Source of the DNA: Lachnospiraceae bacterium
Lineage (GTDB): Bacteria; Bacillota; Clostridia; Lachnospirales; Lachnospiraceae
Direction of reading: 5' to 3'
Length of the DNA: 43,989 nucleotides
Assembly: GCA_030540075.1 (NCBI GenBank)
Contig: JAUNWX010000017.1
Span: 1 to 43,989 of the forward strand
Of the stretch, positions 1 through 33,596 are shown piece after piece. The notes under the pieces are model-generated. The model did no database searches and had not been told where the DNA came from. It saw only the letters and a list, made by a program, of their open reading frames with translations. Made by a program: the position numbers and the translations under genes. Every line of letters begins with the position of its first letter. The stretch's first letter is position 1.

Positions 1-123
1 AAAATCCCATCCCTTAGAAGTACTTGGTGTATCTCTCCTTGGAACCCTCTGTCAACGCTGAGTTTTCATCAGGAAAACTCAGCGATTGCAGAGGGCCTAG
101 TACTTCTTAGGGATGGGATTTTA
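1..123 (+). repeat. Nested long hairpin element, copy 1
   Basis: Positions 1-27 pair with 97-123 (outer stem with AAAATC/GATTTT ends). Inside it a second stem pairs about 46-68 with 72-96 around the core CGCTGAGTTTTC/GAAAACTCAGCG. A bulge of about 17 nt lies only on the 5' side. A related element lies at 5331-5451 on the minus strand, with the same architecture and an identical core but compensating differences in both stems. It sits beyond the 3' end of the HtrA-like gene. It could be a structured RNA, a terminator variant or a miniature mobile element. The window begins at its first base, so it may extend further left. Confidence 0.75.
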
Positions 124-137
124 GAGTCTTCCGAGCT

Positions 138-173
138 CGGAGTACTGTGCTTCTGATGACAGCCCTCCGGGGC
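138..173 (+). repeat. CGGAGTACTGTG stem-loop, copy 1
   Basis: CGGAG (138-142) can pair with CTCCG (165-169) around a loop beginning TACTGTGCTTCTG. The 18-base string at 138-155 recurs exactly on the minus strand near 37.36 kb, and a shorter version lies on the minus strand at about 5290-5319. Copies 1 and 2 follow the long hairpin in the same order and orientation, so the stem-loop is probably part of the same element. Confidence 0.55.
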
Positions 174-194
174 CCTCGTGAAATTCTCATGAAA

Positions 195-1562
195 TTATCG
201 TGCGCCGACCGTCAGCTTATACTCGACCTCACTGTACTCGGAGCCGCGCTGGCGCTGCACCTTCACCCTGATGTCGTCGCCGACCTCGAGCTCGCCGAGC
301 ACCTTCCGAAAGGTCGGCATGTCATCGATCTCGCTGTCGTCGATCATCGTGAGGACATCCCCGCTCTGGATGCCTGCATTGAACGCCGGCGAATTCTTAT
401 CGCACTCCTGGATATAGAGACCGGCCGGAAGCCCTGCGCGGGCCATCTCGGACGTCACCTCCTGCGCATGGAAGCCGAGGTACGGATAAGCGATGCCGTT
501 CGACAGCTTCTGAATCTGTGCGAGGAAATCCGTCGCGACGGCGATGCGGTGATAGCCATCCACGGTGTCCCCGAGGCGGCTGCTCACCCAGCCGATCAGC
601 TCGCCCTTCGTATTCAGCACGAAGGCCCCGCTCTCCGGGCTTGCATGAAGATCCGCGATCATCGCGGCGATACTGCCATCGATGTAGGATGTGTTATAGC
701 TGATGGACGAAATCCTGCCGGTCGTGCAGGACGGATAGCTGTCATCCGGGGCCCCGACCGCGAGGAGCAGGTCCCCACGCTGCAGGCGGCCTGCGTTACC
801 GATGGTGATCGTCCGAAGCTCATGCCGATCCTTCGCGCTGAGCGTGTGCTGGGCGACGGAAACCACCGCGATCCCATCCGCCTGGTCCTGTGCCTTCAGC
901 TGTGCTTCATAGGAGGAGCCGTTCACACGCACCGTGATCCCGTCGTTCTCCTTTATGATGTCCGCGGAGGTGAGCACCAGAAGCTCATCGCCGGTGCGTG
1001 CGATCAGAATGCCGGCGGCCTGTCTGCCGGACTCCACCTCCATGCCGAACATGTCGGTGCTGGTCACGCGGCTCTCGACCTCGACGAGGCTCTGCTCCGC
1101 CTGCTGCGCGACATGCTTGAGCGCCGCGTTCAGCTTCTCGTAATCCGCCACCGTGTACGCATAGTCTGCGAGCTCCTGCCGCACGACGTCCTCAACCGGA
1201 CTCGTCTCCGGCGGGGCACTCGTTTCCGCGGCCTGCGCCACTTCTGCACCGGACTGTCCGGCTTCCCCGGATGCAGCGGATGTGGTCTCCGCTGCGGACG
1301 GAGCACTGCCCTCGCCTGTACTCTCCTCCGGAACTGCGCTGCTGTCCTCCGAGCCGGTCACTTCCGTTTCCAGGACGACGGCCTCGCTCTCCATCGGATG
1401 CAGGCGTTCCCGGATCGCCGGCTCCAGGCCGCCGAAGACAGCGGCACTGACGGAGCCAAACAGAAGTGCGGAAATCAGCACACGTGCATAGTGCCGCGTG
1501 CGCTTCTTCCAGTCCTCCTTCCGACCTACGATATTCTCTTTGATAAAGTCTTTTTCTGCCAT
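195..1562 (-). CDS. HtrA-like (S1C) membrane-anchored protein with PDZ domain, catalytic His missing
   Basis: A 455-residue protein with a short basic cytoplasmic N-terminus, one membrane segment (about residues 27-46), an Ala/Ser/Glu-rich stalk (about 60-125), a trypsin-like fold (about 150-350) and a C-terminal PDZ domain (about 355-455). The serine region around residue 311 (PESGAFVLN) aligns with the HtrA GNSGGPLLN motif and keeps Ser. The expected Asp position falls in QADGIAVV. The segment where HtrA has its catalytic His reads LVLTSADII, so the triad appears incomplete. The family normally degrades or holds misfolded envelope proteins; here a non-proteolytic or regulatory role is inferred. 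The ATG at 1562 lies 6 nt from a TATAAT box with no ribosome binding site, which suggests a leaderless mRNA. It is divergent from mutS2. Confidence 0.8.
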   Translation of the reverse strand: MAEKDFIKENIVGRKEDWKKRTRHYARVLISALLFGSVSAAVFGGLEPAIRERLHPMESEAVVLETEVTGSEDSSAVPEESTGEGSAPSAAETTSAASGEAGQSGAEVAQAAETSAPPETSPVEDVVRQELADYAYTVADYEKLNAALKHVAQQAEQSLVEVESRVTSTDMFGMEVESGRQAAGILIARTGDELLVLTSADIIKENDGITVRVNGSSYEAQLKAQDQADGIAVVSVAQHTLSAKDRHELRTITIGNAGRLQRGDLLLAVGAPDDSYPSCTTGRISSISYNTSYIDGSIAAMIADLHASPESGAFVLNTKGELIGWVSSRLGDTVDGYHRIAVATDFLAQIQKLSNGIAYPYLGFHAQEVTSEMARAGLPAGLYIQECDKNSPAFNAGIQSGDVLTMIDDSEIDDMPTFRKVLGELEVGDDIRVKVQRQRGSEYSEVEYKLTVGAR

Positions 1563-1629
1563 AGCACAATTATAACCATGAAGATATTTTCACGCAAGAA
1601 ATTTGCCTTCATGTGCTATACTGATAGGC
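1563..1629. promoter_or_regulatory. Overlapping divergent promoters, both predicting leaderless transcripts
   Basis: Minus strand: TTGCGT (1592-1597), 17 bp, TATAAT (1569-1574), then 6 nt to the ATG of the HtrA-like gene. Plus strand: extended -10 TGC-TATACT (1614-1622), then 7 nt to the mutS2 ATG at 1630; its -35 would fall at about 1594-1599, overlapping the other -35. In both directions transcription would start at or next to the A of the start codon, and neither gene has a good ribosome binding site. Confidence 0.6.
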
Positions 1630-4116
1630 ATGAATGAAAAAGTATTACACACACTCGAATTTAATAAGATCAAGGATCGCCTGACCGACTGTGCAAGCTC
1701 CCAGGAGGGACGTAAGCTGGTGCAGGCACTGCTGCCATCGACCGATCTCGCCGAGATCGATCGAAATCTCGCGGAAACCGACGCGGCCATGCTCCGCATC
1801 GGTCTCTATGGCACGCTTTCATTTTCCGGCGTGAAGGACGTCCGCGACAGCCTGAAGCGGCTCGAGATCGCGGCCTCTCTTTCCGCGGCAGAGCTGCTCT
1901 CCATCAGTGGCGTACTGACCGTCGCCGGTCGTGCAAAGGCCTATGCCCGTGACAGCGAGAAGACGCCGGAGGCACCGAAGCCGGTGCCGCGGGCGGTGCG
2001 TTTAAGCGCCCACTACACGAAGAATCAGCCGGATCCGGAGAAGCTCCGGGAGGAAACGGCAGACGACGCACTGTCGCCGTACTTCCGCGACATCGAACCG
2101 CTCTCTCCGGTCAATAAGGAAATCGTCCGCTGCATCCTCTCGGAGGATGAGATCGCCGACGATGCGAGTGCCGGTCTCTTCAGCGTACGTAAGAAAAAGC
2201 ATGCGCTGGAGGAGCGCATCCACACGACGCTGAACGGCATTCTGAATGGCAGCCGTGCCCTGCTGCAGGACGCGGTCATCACCATGCGCGATGGTCGCTA
2301 CTGTCTCCCAGTGAAGGCGGAGTATAAGTCGAGCTTCCCGGGCATGGTCCACGACCAGAGTGCGACGGGATCGACGCTCTTCATCGAGCCGATGAGCATC
2401 GTCAAGCTGAATAATGACATCCGTGAGCTCGAGGCCGACGAAAAGAAGGAGATCGAGAAGGTCCTGGATACCCTGTCCGGCTCCCTGATGCCATACACTG
2501 AACAGATTCGACAGGATATCGAGATCCTCGCGCACCTCGACTTCGTCTTCGCGAAGGCGAAGCTGGCGACCTCCATGCGGGCCACCCGTCCGGTACTGAA
2601 CGATCACTACTACATCAACATCCTGCAGGGTCGTCATCCGCTGATCGACCCGAAGAAGGTCGTGCCGATCACGGTGTACCTCGGAAAGGAATTCGATCTT
2701 CTCGTCATCACGGGACCAAACACCGGTGGTAAGACCGTGTGCCTGAAGACCATCGGTCTCTTCCAGCTGATGGGCCAGTCCGGTCTCTTCATCCCGGCGG
2801 CCGAGGGCTCGGAGCTCGGTGTGTTCGAGGAAATCTTCGCCGACATCGGTGACGAGCAGTCCATCGAGCAGAATCTGTCGACTTTCTCCGCGCACATGAC
2901 GAACACCGTCCGTATCCTGAGCGAAGCCGACAGCCACAGTCTCTGTCTCTTCGATGAGCTCGGTGCCGGTACCGATCCGACCGAGGGTGCGGCGCTCGCG
3001 ATGGCGATTCTGAACTTCCTTCATAATATGAAGACACGGACCGTCGCGACCACCCACTACGCAGAGATCAAGGTCTATGCCCTCTCCACCGAGGGCGTCG
3101 AGAACGCGAGCTGCGAGTTCGACGTGAACACCCTGAGCCCGACCTATCGTCTGCTGATCGGTGTCCCTGGTAAGTCCAATGCGTTCGCCATCTCACAGAA
3201 GCTGGGCCTGCCATCCTACATCATCGACGATGCGAAGAGCCGCCTCGAGAACGAGGATGTCAAGTTCGAAGATGTCATCGCGAGTCTCGAGGAGAGCCGC
3301 GTGACCGTCGAGCGGGAGCGCGAGGAGATCGCACGCTATAAAGCGGAGATCGAGGAGTACAAGCGGCGTGCACGGGAGAACTCCCGCGGCGTCGAGAAGG
3401 GCCGTGACAAGATTCTCCAGAAGGCCCGTGAGGAGGCTGCACAGATCCTGGCGGACGCCAAGGAAACCGCGGACTCCATCGTGAAGGAGCTCCGGAAGCA
3501 GGAGCAGAACGGTGCGGCGGTCTTCGAGGCCGACCAGACCCGCTCCACGCTGAATAAGAAGCTGCGGGAGACCCAGGCGAGCCTCTCCGCCGCCCAGAAG
3601 GTGAAGGGCCCGGCCCAGCCGGTATCCGCGAAGAGCCTCCGCATCGGCGACACCGTCCATGTGGCTTCGATGAACCTGAACGCCACGGTATCGACGCTGC
3701 CGGATCGAAACGGGAAGCTCTATGTCACCGCCGGCATCATCCGCACCCAGGTATCGGTGCGCGATATCGAGCTCGTGGATACCGGGAAGGTGTCCGGTCC
3801 GGGTCTCGAGCCGACGAAGAAGGGAAAGAAGTCCCATGCCGGCAATATCCGCATGCAGAAGACCATGAGCATCTCTCCGGAGATCAATCTCATCGGCCAG
3901 ACCACTGCGGAGGCGATCCCGGAGCTGCAGAAGTATCTCGACGACGCCTACCTCGCGCATCTGCCGCAGGTCCGTGTCGTTCACGGACGCGGTACCGGCG
4001 TGCTCCGGAAGGCGGTGCATGCACAGCTGAAGAAGCTGAAATACGTGGATTCCTTCCGCCTCGGTGAGTTCGGCGAGGGCCAGGATGGTGTCACGATCGT
4101 TATGTTTAAGAAGTAA
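1630..4116 (+). CDS. mutS2: Endonuclease MutS2
   Basis: An 828-residue MutS2 counted from the ATG at 1630. It has a MutS-like core domain, the P-loop GPNTGGKT, the Walker B segment LCLFDELGAGTDP, a long Glu/Lys/Arg-rich coiled coil after the ATPase, and a C-terminal Smr domain with the HGRGTG motif. Length and order match the family. MutS2 acts on branched DNA and stalled ribosomes and limits recombination. The usual LDLRG motif at the start of Smr reads INLIGQTT, a tolerated variant. An upstream TTG at 1603 is in frame, but it would place the start upstream of the -10 box, so 1630 is preferred. The start has only a weak GATAGG upstream. Confidence 0.95.
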   Translation: MNEKVLHTLEFNKIKDRLTDCASSQEGRKLVQALLPSTDLAEIDRNLAETDAAMLRIGLYGTLSFSGVKDVRDSLKRLEIAASLSAAELLSISGVLTVAGRAKAYARDSEKTPEAPKPVPRAVRLSAHYTKNQPDPEKLREETADDALSPYFRDIEPLSPVNKEIVRCILSEDEIADDASAGLFSVRKKKHALEERIHTTLNGILNGSRALLQDAVITMRDGRYCLPVKAEYKSSFPGMVHDQSATGSTLFIEPMSIVKLNNDIRELEADEKKEIEKVLDTLSGSLMPYTEQIRQDIEILAHLDFVFAKAKLATSMRATRPVLNDHYYINILQGRHPLIDPKKVVPITVYLGKEFDLLVITGPNTGGKTVCLKTIGLFQLMGQSGLFIPAAEGSELGVFEEIFADIGDEQSIEQNLSTFSAHMTNTVRILSEADSHSLCLFDELGAGTDPTEGAALAMAILNFLHNMKTRTVATTHYAEIKVYALSTEGVENASCEFDVNTLSPTYRLLIGVPGKSNAFAISQKLGLPSYIIDDAKSRLENEDVKFEDVIASLEESRVTVEREREEIARYKAEIEEYKRRARENSRGVEKGRDKILQKAREEAAQILADAKETADSIVKELRKQEQNGAAVFEADQTRSTLNKKLRETQASLSAAQKVKGPAQPVSAKSLRIGDTVHVASMNLNATVSTLPDRNGKLYVTAGIIRTQVSVRDIELVDTGKVSGPGLEPTKKGKKSHAGNIRMQKTMSISPEINLIGQTTAEAIPELQKYLDDAYLAHLPQVRVVHGRGTGVLRKAVHAQLKKLKYVDSFRLGEFGEGQDGVTIVMFKK

Positions 4117-4228
4117 AGGCGCAGGCCAGCGGTCGTAGCGCGCACGAAGTCCCGGTAAGGAAACATCGGCGGGCGGGTGCCTGCGACAGCGCCGGAAGCA
4201 TTGGCCGAAGAACGAGGAGGAAAGCCGG
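4117..4228. other. mutS2-response regulator intergenic region with CATTGGCC motif
   Basis: A 112-bp spacer. It contains GCATTGGCCGAAG at 4198-4210, the same 13-mer that recurs at 29710-29722 (other strand) and 36270-36282. A strong AGGAGG ribosome binding site for the next gene lies at about 4215. No clear promoter or terminator was found, so mutS2 and the regulator may be co-transcribed. Confidence 0.5.
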
Positions 4229-5278
4229 ATGGCGGAGAAACAGAAAATTCTGATCGTGGATGATGACGCTTCAATCTCGGAGCTCATCTCCCTCTATCTC
4301 GAAAAGGAGATGTTTGATACGCGCTGCGCCGCGGATGGCGAGGAGGCGCTGCAGCTCTTTCCGGAATACCAGCCGAATCTCGTGATTCTGGATCTGATGC
4401 TGCCGGGCATCGACGGCTATGAGGTCTGCCGGCGGCTCCGGGCGAGCTCGCAGGTGCCGGTGATCATGCTGTCGGCGAAGGGCGAGACCTTCGATAAGGT
4501 GCTCGGGCTCGAGCTCGGCGCGGACGACTACATGGTGAAGCCGTTTGAGTCGAAGGAGCTCGTGGCGCGGGTGAAGGCGGTGCTTCGTCGCTACCAGCAG
4601 GCACAGGCACAGGTCAATGCTGCCGTCGATGCGGCCCTCTCTGCCCGGCAGGCGCAGGCGGGCGCAGGGCTCGCGATGAATGGCGGCACGGCGGGTGCAG
4701 GTTTCCCGATGAATGGTGCGGCAGGTGCAGGCTTCCCGATGAACGGCGGGGCCGGCGGCGCAGCGCAGGCACGGATGGGCGCGGGCTTCCTCGATACGAC
4801 GGGGCTTCCGGCGGCGGATGCGGATGGCAACATCACCTTCCGGGCGTACGCCGAGGGCGACAGCGGCTCCGGCGAGCTGTACACCTACAACGGGCAGACC
4901 GGACAGCTGCATCGCGGCGGTACCGGCGCTTCGGACGCGCGGGCGCATGCGACGGATATGCTCGACGCCTACCGGAATGGTGACTACATCGAATACAAGG
5001 ATCTCATCATCAATAAGTCGAATTACGCGGTCTACTACAGTGGTCATGTCGTGGAGATGCCGCCGAAGGAGCTCGAGCTTCTCTACTTCCTGGCGTCCTC
5101 ACCGAATCAGGTCTTCACGCGTGAGCAGCTCCTCGATCACATCTGGGGCTATGAGTTCGCCGGGGATTCCCGTACGGTCGATGTGCACATCAAGCGGCTG
5201 CGCGAGAAGCTGCCGGGGAATCCGGACTGGGAGATTTCCACGGTCTGGGGCATCGGCTACAAGTTCAGAGTCATATAA
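4229..5278 (+). CDS. OmpR/PhoB-family response regulator with unusually long Gly/Ala/Met-rich linker
   Basis: A 349-residue two-component regulator. The receiver domain (residues 1-121) has the acidic pair at DDD11-13, phosphoacceptor Asp55 (VILDLMLPG) and conserved Lys104 (VKPF). The C-terminal winged helix (about 256-349) has the FTREQLLDHIWGYE and RTVDVHIKRLREKL segments of the OmpR/PhoB class. The two are separated by about 130 residues, where the family usually has fewer than 20. The linker contains near-repeats of AGAGFPMNG that are also repeated at DNA level (about 4660-4790), so it seems to have grown by tandem duplication. A consensus AGGAGG precedes the ATG. The gene is convergent with a sensor kinase, a plausible but unproven partner. 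Confidence 0.92.
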   Translation: MAEKQKILIVDDDASISELISLYLEKEMFDTRCAADGEEALQLFPEYQPNLVILDLMLPGIDGYEVCRRLRASSQVPVIMLSAKGETFDKVLGLELGADDYMVKPFESKELVARVKAVLRRYQQAQAQVNAAVDAALSARQAQAGAGLAMNGGTAGAGFPMNGAAGAGFPMNGGAGGAAQARMGAGFLDTTGLPAADADGNITFRAYAEGDSGSGELYTYNGQTGQLHRGGTGASDARAHATDMLDAYRNGDYIEYKDLIINKSNYAVYYSGHVVEMPPKELELLYFLASSPNQVFTREQLLDHIWGYEFAGDSRTVDVHIKRLREKLPGNPDWEISTVWGIGYKFRVI

Positions 5279-5279
5279 A

Positions 5280-5506
5280 CGCCGCCGGGGGAGCCTTCCG
5301 GAACACAGTACTCCTGCGGCGGAAAAATCTAAAATCGGAGTCCTAAGAATCACTAGGCCCCCTGCAATCGCTGAGATTTTCTTTATGAAAACTCAGCGTT
5401 GCAGGGGGTGCTAAGGAAAATCATCCAAGTGATTCTAAGGACTCCGATTTTGATTTTTCACGTCCTCGGTGTATGGTTCCGGGAGGCTCCCCCGGCGGCG
5501 TTTTTT
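5280..5506. terminator. Very long GC-rich inverted repeat between convergent genes
   Basis: The arm at 5280-5304 pairs with 5476-5500 with one mismatch in 25, and is followed on the plus strand by six T residues (5501-5506). It lies exactly between the 3' ends of the response regulator and the sensor kinase, so it probably terminates transcription, at least on the plus strand. The loop is about 170 nt and contains the second copy of the nested hairpin, as if that element sits inside a terminator loop. Confidence 0.75.
5331..5451 (-). repeat. Nested long hairpin element, copy 2
   Basis: Read on the minus strand, this aligns end to end with copy 1 (1-123). The AAAATC/GATTTT ends, the one-sided 5' bulge with TCCTTRG, and the core CGCTGAGTTTTC are kept. 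The outer stem is GGAGT/ACTCC here but CCATC/GATGG in copy 1, and the inner stem is CCCCTGC/GCAGGGG here but CCCTCTG/CAGAGGG there. Pairing is preserved while sequence changes. The GGAGTACTGTG stem-loop follows at about 5290-5319 on the same strand. Confidence 0.75.
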
Positions 5507-6917
5507 ATGACTCTGGCACCTCATAGCTGGCCTGCGGAAGTGTGAAGGTGAACTCGGTGCCGACGCCTTCGGTGGAGACGCAGTCGATGTTCTCGCCGTG
5601 CGCGGTGATGATGGACTTCACGATGCTGAGGCCGAGGCCGGTGCCGTGCTTGTCCTTGCCGCGGGACTGGTCCGCCTTATAGAAGCGATCCCAGATCTTC
5701 GCGAGGTCGCGCTTCGGGATGCCGATGCCAGTGTCCTTGATGGAGACGAAGACCTTCTGGCCGCGGATGCCGGTGCGGATCGCGATCGAGGATTTCGGAT
5801 TACTGAACTTCAGTGCGTTGTCGATCAGGTTATAGAGCACCTGCTGGATCTTACTGTAGTCCGCGTAGACCATCTCCTTTTTCTCGGCGAAGGTCAGCTC
5901 GAAGACGAGCTCCTTCTTCTGGCAGGTCATCTCGAAGCTCGCGCAGACATCACGGATCACGCGGTTCACGTCGAAGTTCGTCCGGCTGAGGAAGCCCTTC
6001 TTATCCAGGGTGCCCAGACTCAGCATTGACTGTGTCAGCTTCGTGAGACGCTCCGTCTCGGAGATCAGGCGCATGAGGTACTTCGGTTCCAGCTCCTTCG
6101 GAATCGTGCCGTCGAGGATGGCCTCTAGGTAGCCCTTGATGGAGGTCAGCGGGGAGCGGAAGTCGTGGCTCACGTTCGCGATGAACTGCTTCTGATAGTC
6201 GTCGGACTTCGAGATCTCATCCGACATGAAGTTCAGAGTCTCCGCAAGGTAGCCCATCTCATCTTCCGAGTTCGTCGTGATCTTGTAGTGATAGTCACCG
6301 GCGGCGTACTTCGTGGCCCCCTCCGTGATTCGCTTCAGCGGACGGTAGACGATGACATAGAAAACGGCCATGATCAGCAGCGAGAGCAGGAAGAGGATGA
6401 GTGCCGTGAGGTAGACGATGTTCAGGATGTCGTTCTGTGAAGCGACGATGTTGGCGACCGGCTCATGGATGAGGACGTAGCCGCCGGTCGTGTAGCCACG
6501 GGTCACCGGGGCCATGACCGAGAGGACATCGTCCGGATACAGCTCGTGATAGCGGCCGAGCTTATAGCGCATGCCGGTCATCGTGCTGTCGAAATCCGGA
6601 ATCTCGATGTTCTTGTGCGCATCATCTGCGGTGTCGCTCAGCACCTTTCCGTTCCGGTCCACGATCCAGATGTCGACATCGAGGAAGGTGGAGACCGCCT
6701 TCATCTGCTGACTCACCGTGTCGGTGCTCAGATTCAGGTTACCCGTCTCGGAATAGGTCGAGGAGATCAGGGTCGCCTCACTGTAGAGGCTGTTCGCCTG
6801 CTCCCGGATCAGGTAGCGGTAGGTGAGTCCGGAGGACAGGAGCGCCACGACCATGAAGCCCAGCACACCGAAGACGATATACGCCACGATAAATTTTACA
6901 AACAGGGATCGTTTCAC
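5505..6917 (-). CDS. Sensor histidine kinase (HAMP, HisKA, HATPase_c)
   Basis: A 470-residue membrane kinase. Membrane segments lie at about 9-30 and 165-190 and enclose an extracytoplasmic sensing domain of about 130 residues. HAMP (about 190-240) follows, then HisKA with phosphoacceptor His251 (NVSHDFRSPLTS). The HATPase domain has the N box (NLIDNALKFSNP, about 363-374), G1 (DTGIGI, 395-400) and G2 (GTGLGL, 425-430). The start is GTG at 6917 and overlaps the glucokinase stop by 4 bp (GTGA), suggesting translational coupling. It sits tail to tail with the response regulator at 4229-5278. Encoding the kinase behind a glucokinase and convergent with the regulator is unusual for a cognate pair. 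Confidence 0.93.
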   Translation of the reverse strand: MKRSLFVKFIVAYIVFGVLGFMVVALLSSGLTYRYLIREQANSLYSEATLISSTYSETGNLNLSTDTVSQQMKAVSTFLDVDIWIVDRNGKVLSDTADDAHKNIEIPDFDSTMTGMRYKLGRYHELYPDDVLSVMAPVTRGYTTGGYVLIHEPVANIVASQNDILNIVYLTALILFLLSLLIMAVFYVIVYRPLKRITEGATKYAAGDYHYKITTNSEDEMGYLAETLNFMSDEISKSDDYQKQFIANVSHDFRSPLTSIKGYLEAILDGTIPKELEPKYLMRLISETERLTKLTQSMLSLGTLDKKGFLSRTNFDVNRVIRDVCASFEMTCQKKELVFELTFAEKKEMVYADYSKIQQVLYNLIDNALKFSNPKSSIAIRTGIRGQKVFVSIKDTGIGIPKRDLAKIWDRFYKADQSRGKDKHGTGLGLSIVKSIITAHGENIDCVSTEGVGTEFTFTLPQASYEVPES

Positions 6918-20886: not shown

Positions 20887-21345
20887 CATTACTCCGCTCG
20901 CCGATGCAGGGCGATGCAGGGCGAAAAATGCCCGAATACCTAAGTTACAGTTCAACTCGCACTTCGCTCTCTTAGGGAGTTTGAGGCTGCGTCTCATTCA
21001 CCCATGAAATCCGTGGATACCTGCACGTTATAATCCTGCCCATGCTGTATCTTTTTGGATGTTTTGTATGATGATGACTGGGCAGTCTGAGAAAAATGCT
21101 GCATCATCTGGGCAGAATTCTTCACTGATGCCAACAACGAGCTTCTATTCCTCTTGATTTTTGTTGGCATCAGCTTCATTTTCAGCCGTTTTGATACAGC
21201 ATCATGGCCTCCAAATCCCCACTTACCGTTAGCATCAGAGCAGTTTTTCGCTGTTTTGATACAGCATCACCCGCTCGAGCTAGGACAAGCAGGAATCGCA
21301 GCAAGCCAAAACGCCAGATGGTGGCTATCACCTGCTTGAAATAAA
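20887..21345. other. Repeat-rich non-coding region
   Basis: About 460 bp without a convincing gene. It holds a 10-bp tandem duplication (GCGATGCAGG, about 20903-20922), the inverted pair CCTAAG/CTTAGG (about 20939-20976), and two direct copies of GTTTTGATACAGCATCA (about 21187 and 21257). The second of these leads into the dispersed repeat that follows, and a similar GATACAGCAT stands beside the copy at 32.6 kb. A 61-codon minus-strand frame (20994-21179) lacks a ribosome binding site and is not accepted as a gene. Confidence 0.5.
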
Positions 21346-21469
21346 GCAGGCGGCGATTTTTTGTTTGCCTGCATGGGGCGGGACCCATATGTAAGTAGAT
21401 AAAAGATGTACCCTGGGGGGTGGGCAGGCAAACCAAAAAGAGACGCCTGGTATGGACATCCTTGAAAAT
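21346..21469 (+). repeat. Dispersed palindromic repeat (GTTTGCCTGC family), copy A
   Basis: A block of about 124 bp with inner inverted ends GTTTGCCTGC (21363-21372) and GCAGGCAAAC (21424-21433) and an outer pair CAGGCG/CGCCTG. The centre reads ATATGTAAGTAGATAAA. An inverted near-full copy lies at 32596-32716 and a decayed copy at 33391-33466. It resembles a MITE or REP-type element with no coding capacity. Confidence 0.8.
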
Positions 21470-21629
21470 CCGCCGAGCCCAGACTTAATATGGCTGATTG
21501 TTACATTCATAAAAATATCGTAAGAATCGGTAAGCTTCTCTCTATAGCATTTTCCGTTCGGATTCGTTAACATAGAGATAGTTAACTTCGCGGGAGGTGT
21601 GTTCCCGGGAGTTTTGAGAGGGTGGATAT

Positions 21630-32497: not shown

Positions 32498-32559
32498 AAA
32501 AAGTGGCCGTCCGACAAGCAGATTGGAAATCAATTCACTTGCCGGACGGCCACTTTTTG
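32498..32559. terminator. Bidirectional terminator after the ECF operon
   Basis: The stem AAAAAGTGGCCGTCCG/CGGACGGCCACTTTTT ends in a T-tract. Confidence 0.88.
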
Positions 32560-32595
32560 TAGCAGTTCAGCCGGGGTGATTTTGTAACCCGGATC

Positions 32596-32716
32596 ATTTT
32601 CAAGGAATCTCCATACCAGGCGCCTCTTCTCGTTTGCCTGCCCACCCCAGTATACATCCTTTATCTACTTACATATCGGCCCCGCCCCGTGCAGGCAAAC
32701 AAAAAATCGGCGCCTG
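32596..32716 (-). repeat. Dispersed palindromic repeat (GTTTGCCTGC family), copy B
   Basis: On the minus strand this matches copy A (21346-21469) nearly base for base, including the ATATGTAAGTAGATAAA centre, with inner ends at 32632-32641 and 32691-32700 and an outer GGCGCC pair. The match continues into GATACAGCAT and CCGCTC beyond 32716, as at copy A. Confidence 0.8.
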
Positions 32717-32794
32717 TTTTCGTTTGAGCGGATAATGCTGTATCGCATGTTGATAAAGGCTGGCATCGGTTTTTTCACAAATTTGCTTTATCCG

Positions 32795-33260
32795 AATCGT
32801 ATGCCATTAGGCTTTTTCACAGTTTCCTTTCCTGGCGAGTCTATGACATTAAGTCCCGTCACTCTCGCTCAGTAAAATCCGAGTGAAATCTCGATTTTTG
32901 ACGCAAAAGCCCTCAATTTCGAGGCAGTGACTTTATCTTCTTCTCTGATTTTCTTCTGCAAACCAACAGCTGAGCCAGCCTCGACGCCGCATACTTAATG
33001 TCACAGTTCAAAAAATTTCCCTGATTGTGAAATAATCTAATGGCATGACTCTCTGAAATCCACGATCTGTAAAAGTCACTTAATGTCACGAAATCTGAAA
33101 CCAGCCTGTTTGTAACAAACTCTGGAAAATCTAATGGCATCTCCCTTAGAAAAACTCATTTTGCGAAAACCACTTAATGGCACGATATCTAAAAATGTCC
33201 TGTTTATAACAAATTCCAGAAAATCTAATGTCATGTCTCCTGGAAATCCACTCTTTGCGA
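32795..33260. repeat. Imperfect tandem array with CTTAATGKCA sites
   Basis: Alternating boxes CTTAATGTCAC and CTAATGGCATG recur at about 32993, 33035, 33079, 33131, 33173 and 33225 (spacing 42-51 bp), with related boxes in the opposite sense at about 32800 and 32842. The intervening sequence also repeats (CCTGTTTGTAACAAACTCTGG and a variant), giving units of about 93 bp. Minus-strand frames through it encode a repeated LDFxEFVxNR peptide, but no ribosome binding site was seen and a protein is doubtful. It lies upstream of an ATPase gene. Confidence 0.7.
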
Positions 33261-33390
33261 AAGAATGCCAATGACCAGGGGGGAGTGCAGCAATGCTGTT
33301 TTCGAAGAAACTGCAATTTATAAATCTCATGTAGTGGAGCTCCTGATATTCCCTCGCCCGATTATGATATTGAATACCTCCGCGGTAAAA

Positions 33391-33466
33391 GCGTCGATTT
33401 TTTGGTTTGCTTGCATGGGGCGGGGCCGCTATGTGAATAGATACCCTCCGGGTCCCCTGCCTACCT
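33391..33466 (+). repeat. Dispersed palindromic repeat, decayed copy C
   Basis: It shares CGATTTTTT, GTTTGCTTGCATGGGGCGGG and the ATGTGAATAGATA centre with copy A. The right end has diverged and the inverted end is lost. Confidence 0.65.
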
Positions 33467-33596
33467 GAACTGTCTGCGAAAACTTGACATAAAACTGAGC
33501 TGATATTAAAATCAGATATAACAAGATATAACAAAAGTATCTCTAATAGGGGATATCACTACAACTGCCGCAATAAAAATAAGAAGGGAGGAGCTG

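What the first reader, a model, noticed from the sequence alone, without database searches (positions are those of the whole stretch)
1..5451. Two-copy nested hairpin element with compensatory changes in both stems
Copies at 1-123 (+) and 5331-5451 (-) align end to end, yet their outer stems (CCATC/GATGG against GGAGT/ACTCC) and inner stems (CCCTCTG/CAGAGGG against CCCCTGC/GCAGGGG) differ by paired substitutions. The central CGCTGAGTTTTC hairpin and a one-sided bulge are unchanged. A plain MITE would keep its terminal sequence; preserved pairing with changed sequence points to selection on structure, i.e. a non-coding RNA or a DNA hairpin recognised by a protein. A TACTGTG-loop stem follows both copies in the same order.
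Basis: partly seen in the sequence, partly recalled or inferred. Interest (0 to 1): 0.8.

Follow-up and report, generated by a model that had tools for sequence, protein, structure and literature searches.

The report
Oribacterium hairpin transposable element, covarying DNA
The two hairpins are copies of a roughly 260-base non-coding mobile element present at least fifty times in this Oribacterium genome; its arms change in matched pairs as a structured RNA would, but the pattern fits folded DNA better than RNA.

Summary
The two stretches are copies of a 237-position nested hairpin, 256-262 bp between target duplications here. The DNA held from the window's genome has 51 non-redundant copies; 10 of 17 genus genomes carry it. 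Of 299 genomes drawn from the family, two others gave weak hits. Covariation is massive: 48 of 64 pairs have changes on both sides, score 0.451 against 0.061-0.134 for slid partners. Fixed asymmetries sit inside the covarying stems: a T.T mismatch in 46 of 46 sequences, another in 44 of 46, and a one-sided bulge.

Intact copies end in GTAACAGTTCAG inverted repeats; exact 8-bp duplications flank 4 of 49 G000 copies and one of 92 others. The same ends bound other non-coding elements of 45-1231 bp. It is MITE-like and protein-free; no transposase was found.

RNA is disfavoured: wobble pairs 2-3% (tRNA 11%) and G.T against A.C mismatches 105 to 98, though two biased or smaller counts lean to G.U. 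I read the pairing as kept at DNA level by arm-to-arm copying or gene conversion, plus selection on hairpin shape.

The parts
1..177 (+). Copy 1 of the element, cut by the contig start (model positions 61-237 of 237)
   Evidence: cmsearch R1 176.8 bits, E 5.7e-48, 5' cut off
1..123 (+). Core nested hairpin of copy 1
   Evidence: Fold -71.8 kcal/mol, z -12.34; blastn finds 40 places in the genome including itself, with 40 of 55 candidates scored
15..108 (+). Ends of the conserved T.T mismatch T15.T108 (CTTAG facing CTTAG)
   Evidence: alignment columns 78/176 are TT in 46 of 46
25..98 (+). Second conserved T.T mismatch T25.T98
   Evidence: alignment columns 89/166 are TT in 44 of 46
28..44 (+). 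One-sided bulge of copy 1
   Evidence: Unpaired in the G.U-free fold; the bulge columns include invariant or nearly invariant T and C positions
143..149 (+). TACTGTG, 3' strand of the outer internal loop, copy 1
   Evidence: Sequence; aligned in G000 copies
5276..5511 (-). Copy 2, full model match, between the ends of two convergent genes: a response regulator (4229-5278 +) and, by order and orthologues, a histidine kinase (5505-6917 -); gene names by eye and context, no family search was run
   Evidence: cmsearch R1 215.9 bits, model 1-237; ORFs
5330..5451 (-). Core nested hairpin of copy 2
   Evidence: Fold -73.4 kcal/mol, z -12.32
5345..5437 (-). Ends of the conserved T.T mismatch T5437.T5345 in copy 2
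5304..5310 (-). TACTGTG, copy 2
   Evidence: Sequence
5266..5275 (+). CAGAGTCATA: palindrome arm running into the last codons of the response-regulator gene
   Evidence: Arm alignment; C-terminus FRVI here (sequence), FRVG in 9 of the 14 orthologues whose end was found, of 15 loci read
5506..5515 (-). Matching CAGAGTCATA arm at the end of the convergent gene
   Evidence: Arm alignment

Best explanation
The finding is two copies of a non-autonomous, protein-free transposable element (a foldback MITE) of the genus Oribacterium. Full copies are one large imperfect palindrome: outer inverted repeats GTAACAGTTCAG(CC), a variable outer stem, an internal loop, a long core stem with two fixed T.T mismatches, a one-sided bulge, and an apical hairpin. 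Shown: ends, target duplications in a few copies, copy number, covariation, fixed mismatches, position at gene 3' ends. Inferred: it is moved as DNA by a transposase acting in trans that makes 8-bp duplications (IS66-like by its ends, not identified). Its arms stay complementary because the palindrome is handled as DNA: one arm can serve as template for the other during replication, and copies can convert one another, so changes appear in pairs. Also inferred: selection keeps the hairpin shape with its directional CTTAG motifs, mismatches and bulge, most simply because a protein recognises the folded or asymmetric DNA. Insertions survive mainly just downstream of genes, because those that separate a promoter from its gene are lost.
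For: 51 copies in the G000 DNA held and 10 of 17 genus genomes. Ends: the 14-mer GTAACAGTTCAGCC with up to 2 mismatches occurs 32+35 times in G000 against 3+2 for the reversed control, and 90+96 against 9+10 in G004. Exact 8-bp duplications directly outside the ends of L015, L020, L023, L025 (G000) and L054 (G016), of 7 of 13 elements read in G004 and of 4 of 13 in G000/G013. DNA-level pairing: GU pairs 104 of 4670 (sense) and 133 of 4683 (antisense) in 51 G000 copies, 203 of 8205 and 194 of 8229 in 92 others; single mismatches in a G.U-free fold G.T 105, A.C 98 (p 0.67); 20 tRNAs 56 of 495 GU on their own strand, 20 of 442 on the other. The palindrome runs into both neighbouring reading frames at copy 2. 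A second hairpin type in longer elements with the same ends has exchanged stems around similar loop strands, 16 distinct cases, 2 GU in 201 stem pairs (the loop strands were the search pattern, so their conservation is by construction, and no control was run). Divergent gaps 2 of 48 with the element against 30 of 144 without; convergent 14 of 48 against 12 of 144.
Against: No transposase with these ends was found. Only 4 of 49 G000 and 1 of 92 other copies show a duplication at the expected place; six copies of other species with well-kept ends (L047, L189, L194, L214, L228, L238) show none. Two counts lean to RNA: on RNAalifold-chosen pairs G.U exceeds A.C (82 to 37; 39 to 25 if the structure is chosen on the other strand), and between orthologous copies single changes to G.U are 36 against 21 to A.C (p 0.06). 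In the G.U-free fold the 92 non-G000 copies alone give G.T 65, A.C 46, p 0.09. Those copies also fold better on the sense strand (70 of 92). The RNase P control does not separate strands: 11 of 98 GU on its own strand, 15 of 96 on the other. Arm-to-arm copying alone would erase the T.T mismatches.
Confidence: 0.6

Rival explanations
1. A structured non-coding RNA (or structured 3' UTR element) amplified through the genus; stems covary because the RNA fold is selected.
For: Strong covariation; conserved internal loops and mismatches; location directly after stop codons, median 18 nt from the model edge to a facing gene 3' end, so it should be transcribed; orientation bias 61 to 31 among tandem contexts, p 0.002, orthologous copies counted separately; single changes to G.U over A.C 36 to 21 between orthologous copies and 82 to 37 on RNAalifold pairs.
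Against: Wobble pairs 2-3% against 11% in tRNA; G.T and A.C single mismatches balanced in the G.U-free fold, 105 to 98; no Rfam match at gathering score in the window, and in seven loci only RNase P; both orientations occur at orthologous sites.
Confidence: 0.16
2. Purely mutational: an old palindromic MITE whose arms are homogenised by template switching and whose copies are homogenised by gene conversion, with no selection on the structure at all.
For: Template switching is a proposed and documented source of multi-base compensatory changes (PMC8794818, passages seen). Some orthologous copies show coupled double changes, e.g. L040/L196 11 kept double changes against 8 single ones. Three simple palindromes of 100-101 bp with the same ends also differ by paired changes, by eye (L281, L283, L288). 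The palindrome runs into both coding ends at copy 2.
Against: A T.T mismatch is kept in 46 of 46 copies from seven genomes and another in 44 of 46; the bulge is kept too. CTTAG occurs on the sense strand in 136 of 143 copies (three times in 76), CTAAG in 10. The 61-bp palindromes with the same ends show mostly single changes, by eye, and several orthologous pairs are dominated by single changes (L052/L206: 1 kept double, 29 single).
Confidence: 0.2
3. A host-useful 3'-end element (terminator or mRNA stabiliser, REP/ERIC-like) that has been domesticated.
For: Enriched between convergent genes and rare in divergent gaps. At copy 2 it stands where G015, G016, G010 and G014 have plain terminator-like hairpins by eye, and its outer stem is flanked by A and T runs. 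Some sites are shared between distant species.
Against: By eye most of the copies printed lack a T run after the outer stem. Purging of insertions near promoters explains the distribution equally well. Shared sites could be independent insertions.
Confidence: 0.15

Closest known systems
ERIC (enterobacterial repetitive intergenic consensus), a 127-bp MITE that folds as one long stem-loop
   Same: Non-coding, intergenic, many copies, single long hairpin with a shared predicted secondary structure (PMC2267715 and PMC10969869, passages seen); ERIC at gene 3' ends can affect transcripts
   Different: Different clade; ends, size and nested form differ; sequence relation to ERIC was not tested
IS66-family insertion sequences and their derivatives
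   Same: Ends begin GTAA and duplications are 8 bp, as in IS66 (PMC11946415 and PMC3281130, passages seen) and as in an IS66 copy of this genus (L299, ends GTAAGCGCC, duplication AGTTCATA)
   Different: IS66 ends are given as GTAAGCG; here GTAACAG. No IS66 genes were found between such ends in the stretches read
Correia/NEMIS elements (Neisseria)
   Same: Short intergenic MITEs; inversion of the element has been reported (PMC10969869, passage seen), as the flipped orthologous copies here suggest
   Different: Correia lies mostly upstream of genes, this one downstream; ends not compared
REP/REPIN/BIME palindromes
   Same: Extragenic palindromes that avoid promoters (the avoidance is recalled, not from a call)
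   Different: REPs are 20-40 bp and tied to REP-associated tyrosine transposases (titles and abstract openings only); here 237 model positions with terminal repeats and duplications

Membership tests
MITE (non-autonomous DNA transposon) | Terminal inverted repeats | tested here: met
   GTAACAGTTCAG-like sequence at both ends of intact copies; enrichment over the reversed control
MITE (non-autonomous DNA transposon) | Target-site duplication | tested here: met
   Exact 8 bp at the expected place in 4 of 49 G000 copies (L015, L020, L023, L025) and 1 of 92 others (L054); the rest show none there
MITE (non-autonomous DNA transposon) | No coding capacity, high copy number | tested here: met
   237-position hairpin, 51 copies in the G000 DNA held
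MITE (non-autonomous DNA transposon) | Autonomous relative with the same ends | tested here: inconclusive
   No transposase between such ends in the stretches read; several G004 contigs break inside elements with these ends, so absence is not proven
IS66 family derivative | Ends start GTAA and 8-bp duplication | tested here: met
IS66 family derivative | Ends GTAAGCG and IS66 transposase genes | tested here: not met
   Ends GTAACAG; IS66 transposases exist in the genus, but in the loci read no such ends were found beside them
Structured non-coding RNA | Covarying stems with tolerated G.U pairs on the transcribed strand | tested here: inconclusive
   Covariation met. G.U share 2-3% and no G.T over A.C excess in the G.U-free fold, but excesses (82 to 37; 36 to 21)
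Structured non-coding RNA | Member of a curated Rfam family | tested here: not met
   0 matches at gathering score in the window; in 7 loci one match, RNase P, not the element
Structured non-coding RNA | Stable transcript | not testable with these tools
   No RNA-seq available
Integron attC-like folded DNA site | Recombinase acting on the folded strand | not tested
   Considered by analogy only (recalled)

The most novel reading that the evidence does not exclude
Oribacterium carries a whole family of protein-free mobile elements, at least 45-1231 bp, sharing GTAACAGTTCAG ends. Their recognised signal is folded DNA: hairpins whose loops, bulges and mismatches are fixed while the stems are free to change in Watson-Crick pairs. 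They would be the DNA counterpart of a structured RNA, and an unknown enzyme would read the shape.
Probability: 0.25. Interest if true: 0.75.

Novelty: new variant of a known kind. Interest (0 to 1): 0.46.

Why it matters
It is a case in which a covariance model built on pairing alone would announce a new structured RNA, while most of the data fit a DNA element. Low wobble use and balanced G.T and A.C mismatches suggest a simple test that could be applied to other repeated 'ncRNA' candidates. If the fixed mismatches are read by a protein, the family would give a natural set of variants of a DNA-hairpin substrate. The many copies just after stop codons also bear on how 3' ends of genes evolve in this genus.

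Tried and rejected
Two-copy element: rejected, 51 copies in the DNA held. Known RNA family: 0 Rfam matches at gathering score in the window; with the loose threshold 8 matches over 5200-5560, all below their gathering scores. Phage origin: one viral record matched the DNA pattern but not the model at E 0.01. Wider distribution: of 77 stretches matching the pattern in genome contigs, 27 were tested with the model together with the viral record, and two matched: Oribacterium P6A1 and an uncultured Lachnospiraceae bacterium. The other 50 were not tested with it in that call. Family-level hits in G284 and G328 are weak (27-35 bits) and I take them for chance. IS66 as the partner: no matching ends at the IS66 loci read. 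Autonomous element between distant end pairs in G004: ordinary genes by eye, no transposase recognised, no family search run. The wobble count on RNAalifold pairs favoured RNA (82 G.U to 37 A.C); I judged it biased by the choice of pairs and repeated it with G.U forbidden. The orthologue count (36 to 21) is not biased in that way and also leans to RNA without reaching 0.05. The small controls (tRNA G.T 4, A.C 0; RNase P G.T 0, A.C 1) are too few to use. The energy difference between strands in other species I ascribe, by inference, to the fixed T.T mismatches. Rows left out: L001, L004, L012, L022, L025, L028, L036, L042 and L052 are not in alignment A1; L022 was also left out. Two low-scoring loci (L072, L081) are counted among 'others' without a genome label. 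Three G011 places listed (C288:3987, C248, C296) were not fetched, nor anything beyond its capped list.
Full report
Observation. Blastn in the same genome found 40 places (40 of 55 candidates scored). Related records named by a DNA pattern are mostly Oribacterium (KHPX15, NK2B42, WCC10, RUI013, P6A1), and the genome search puts genomes whose contigs have the lengths of such records in the window's genus. From 46 copies of seven genomes I made alignment A1 (tally) and model R1 (237 positions, 64 pairs). R1 hits 10 of 17 genus genomes. Of 299 genomes drawn from the family, 3 had a hit: the window's genome and two weak ones. In the DNA held, R1 gives 51 non-redundant copies in G000, among them 1-177 (cut by the contig start) and 5276-5511 of the window. 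I collected 143 copies in all.

Covariation. RNAalifold predicts 64 pairs, of which 48 have a kept change on both sides. 94.3% of cells pair against 77.5% after shuffling; the covariation score is 0.451 against 0.159 shuffled and 0.061-0.134 slid.

What stays fixed. Inside the covarying stems, columns 78/176 are T and T in 46 of 46 and columns 89/166 in 44 of 46; columns 121 and 153, in an internal loop, are both A in 46 of 46. The first T.T arises because CTTAG faces CTTAG (sequence). CTTAG is on the sense strand in 136 of 143 copies (three times in 76), CTAAG in 10. A one-sided bulge with invariant or nearly invariant C and T positions is kept. In a palindrome whose arms were simply copied from one another these would vanish, so I read them as constrained.

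RNA or DNA. If one RNA strand were selected, G.U should be tolerated and A.C not. GU pairs are 104 of 4670 (sense) and 133 of 4683 (antisense) in 51 G000 copies, 203 of 8205 and 194 of 8229 in 92 others. Twenty tRNAs from the loci have 56 of 495 (20 of 442 on the other strand); RNase P has 11 of 98 (15 of 96 on the other strand, so it does not separate strands). Against my reading: on RNAalifold-chosen pairs G.U exceeds A.C, 82 to 37, or 39 to 25 if the structure is chosen on the other strand, and single changes between orthologous copies go to G.U 36 times and to A.C 21 times (p 0.06). With G.U forbidden in the fold, single mismatches are G.T 40 and A.C 52 in G000 (p 0.25), 65 and 46 elsewhere (p 0.09), together 105 and 98; T.T is 254 and A.A 20. 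I take the last count, with the low wobble share, as the best guide and conclude that pairing is kept mainly at the DNA level; a weaker RNA effect is not excluded.

Ends and mobility. Arm alignment runs past the model to GTAACAGTTCAGCC in intact copies. Exact 8-bp duplications sit outside the ends of L015, L020, L023 and L025 in G000 (elements of 256-262 bp between them) and of L054 in G016 (282 bp). In all, 8 of 49 G000 copies share some exact 8-mer across the flanks (1.96 expected from mismatched pairs) and 11 of 92 others (5.55 expected); these five have the right geometry. The 14-mer end is strongly enriched. In G004 it bounds elements of 47-61, 100-101 and 348-569 bp, 7 of 13 with exact duplications. 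In G000 and G013 it bounds elements of 308-1231 bp, 4 of 13 with exact duplications, the longest stop-free stretch being 167 codons. An IS66 element of the genus has GTAAGCGC ends with an 8-bp duplication (L299); published IS66 ends are GTAAGCG with 8-bp repeats (PMC11946415, passages). The signature is IS66-like, but the transposase is not identified. IS66 transposase hits at E up to 0.001 occur in 8 of the 10 genomes with the element and 2 of the 7 without.

How the pairs change. In orthologous copies, double changes that keep pairing can be common: L040/L196 (flanks 88 and 95% identical) 11 kept, 1 broken, 8 single; L033/L042 (97 and 98%) 1 kept double change among 3 substitutions. Other pairs are dominated by single changes: L052/L206 1 kept double against 29 single. 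Over the pairs with fewer than 60 gap columns the totals are 61 kept and 18 broken double changes, 106 single breaks, 36 to G.U, 21 to A.C. Some orthologous sites hold versions differing by an about 80-nt insert, and some hold the element flipped (L194/L243, L053/L236, L037/L181, L003/L199, L169/L198/L208). At copy 2 the palindrome continues as CAGAGTCATA into the last codons of both convergent genes. The response regulator ends FRVI here but FRVG in 9 of the 14 orthologues whose end was found, of 15 loci read. Template switching can make such multi-base paired changes (PMC8794818, passages). Gene conversion among copies is an alternative source; I could not separate the two.

Where it sits. 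Of 143 copies, 133 have a called gene within 400 nt on both sides: tandem -- 61, ++ 31, convergent 34, divergent 7 (orthologous copies counted separately). In 51 Oribacterium 8-kb loci, not cleared of overlap, gaps of at least 50 nt with the element are divergent in 2 of 48 against 30 of 144 without (p 0.006), and convergent in 14 of 48 against 12 of 144 (p 0.0009). Median distance to a facing gene 3' end is 18 nt (n 169), to a facing 5' end 113.5 nt (n 110). My gene calls are a simple codon-usage script. Where copy 2 lies, G015, G016, G010 and G014 have plain terminator-like hairpins by eye, and G009 has a shrunken remnant (18.6 bits, E 7e-4).

The wider family. Seven of the eight long G000 elements read carry, near one or both ends, a hairpin with loop strands CCCACCC and G(G/A)NCC..CCC and differing stems; 16 distinct cases were found, two of them in this window. 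The loop strands were the search pattern, so only the exchanged, still pairing stems are a result, and no control was run. Two long elements fold as DNA better than all of 20 shuffles, z -4.12 and -7.46. This repeats the design of the nested hairpin and is why I keep the novel reading at 0.25.

Literature. Searches combining Oribacterium with RNA or repeat terms listed no paper with an Oribacterium mention among the 20 shown in each; the library is open-access only. Closest in kind are ERIC and other MITEs (passages).

Verdict. Real, large, so far seen in one genus, and better explained as a protein-free DNA mobile element with covarying arms and fixed asymmetries than as an RNA. Transposase, transcription and any binding protein are untested.

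Noticed in passing
window 32559-33476: Another non-coding element with like ends (GTAGCAGTTCAGCC on the left, a decayed CTGAACTGTCTG on the right), holding the CCCACCC/GCCCC hairpin and repeated TAATGGCA-type modules.
   Followed up: partly
window about 20944-21504: A third element of this kind, left end GTTACAGTTCAA and a right end decayed beyond the pattern, with the same hairpin at about 21360-21430.
   Followed up: partly
L337-L344 (G000), L345-L349 (G013), L276-L285 and L287-L289 (G004): A zoo of non-coding elements of 45-1231 bp bounded by GTAACAGTTCAGCC, 11 of 26 with exact 8-bp duplications; several hold tandem hairpin repeats; no coding member seen among these.
   Followed up: partly
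L201, L202, L203, L204, L208, L246, L247, L248 (matches of 312-315 nt); also L036, L145, L206, L243: An about 80-nt multi-hairpin insert inside the nested hairpin, seen aligned near the apex in L204 and L208 and, by eye, at other places in L036 and L243; may be a second small mobile element that enters hairpins.
   Followed up: partly
window 4229-5278: The response regulator carries an about 100-residue Gly/Ala-rich insert that 15 of 16 relatives lack: their matches break at about residues 130 and 235 and their frames are 248-277 aa; in G003 only a paralogue-like match was listed.
   Followed up: no
L123:6514-6560 against L189: At what looks by eye like an orthologous site G013 has the full hairpin element and RUI013 only a 47-bp palindrome of the two ends, as if the inside had been deleted.
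   Followed up: partly
L309, L311 (G011, G013), after the response-regulator gene: A different nested palindrome (AAAATGCAAGGG... / ...CCCTTGCATTTT) sits after the gene; its outer sequence also appears beside L214.
   Followed up: no
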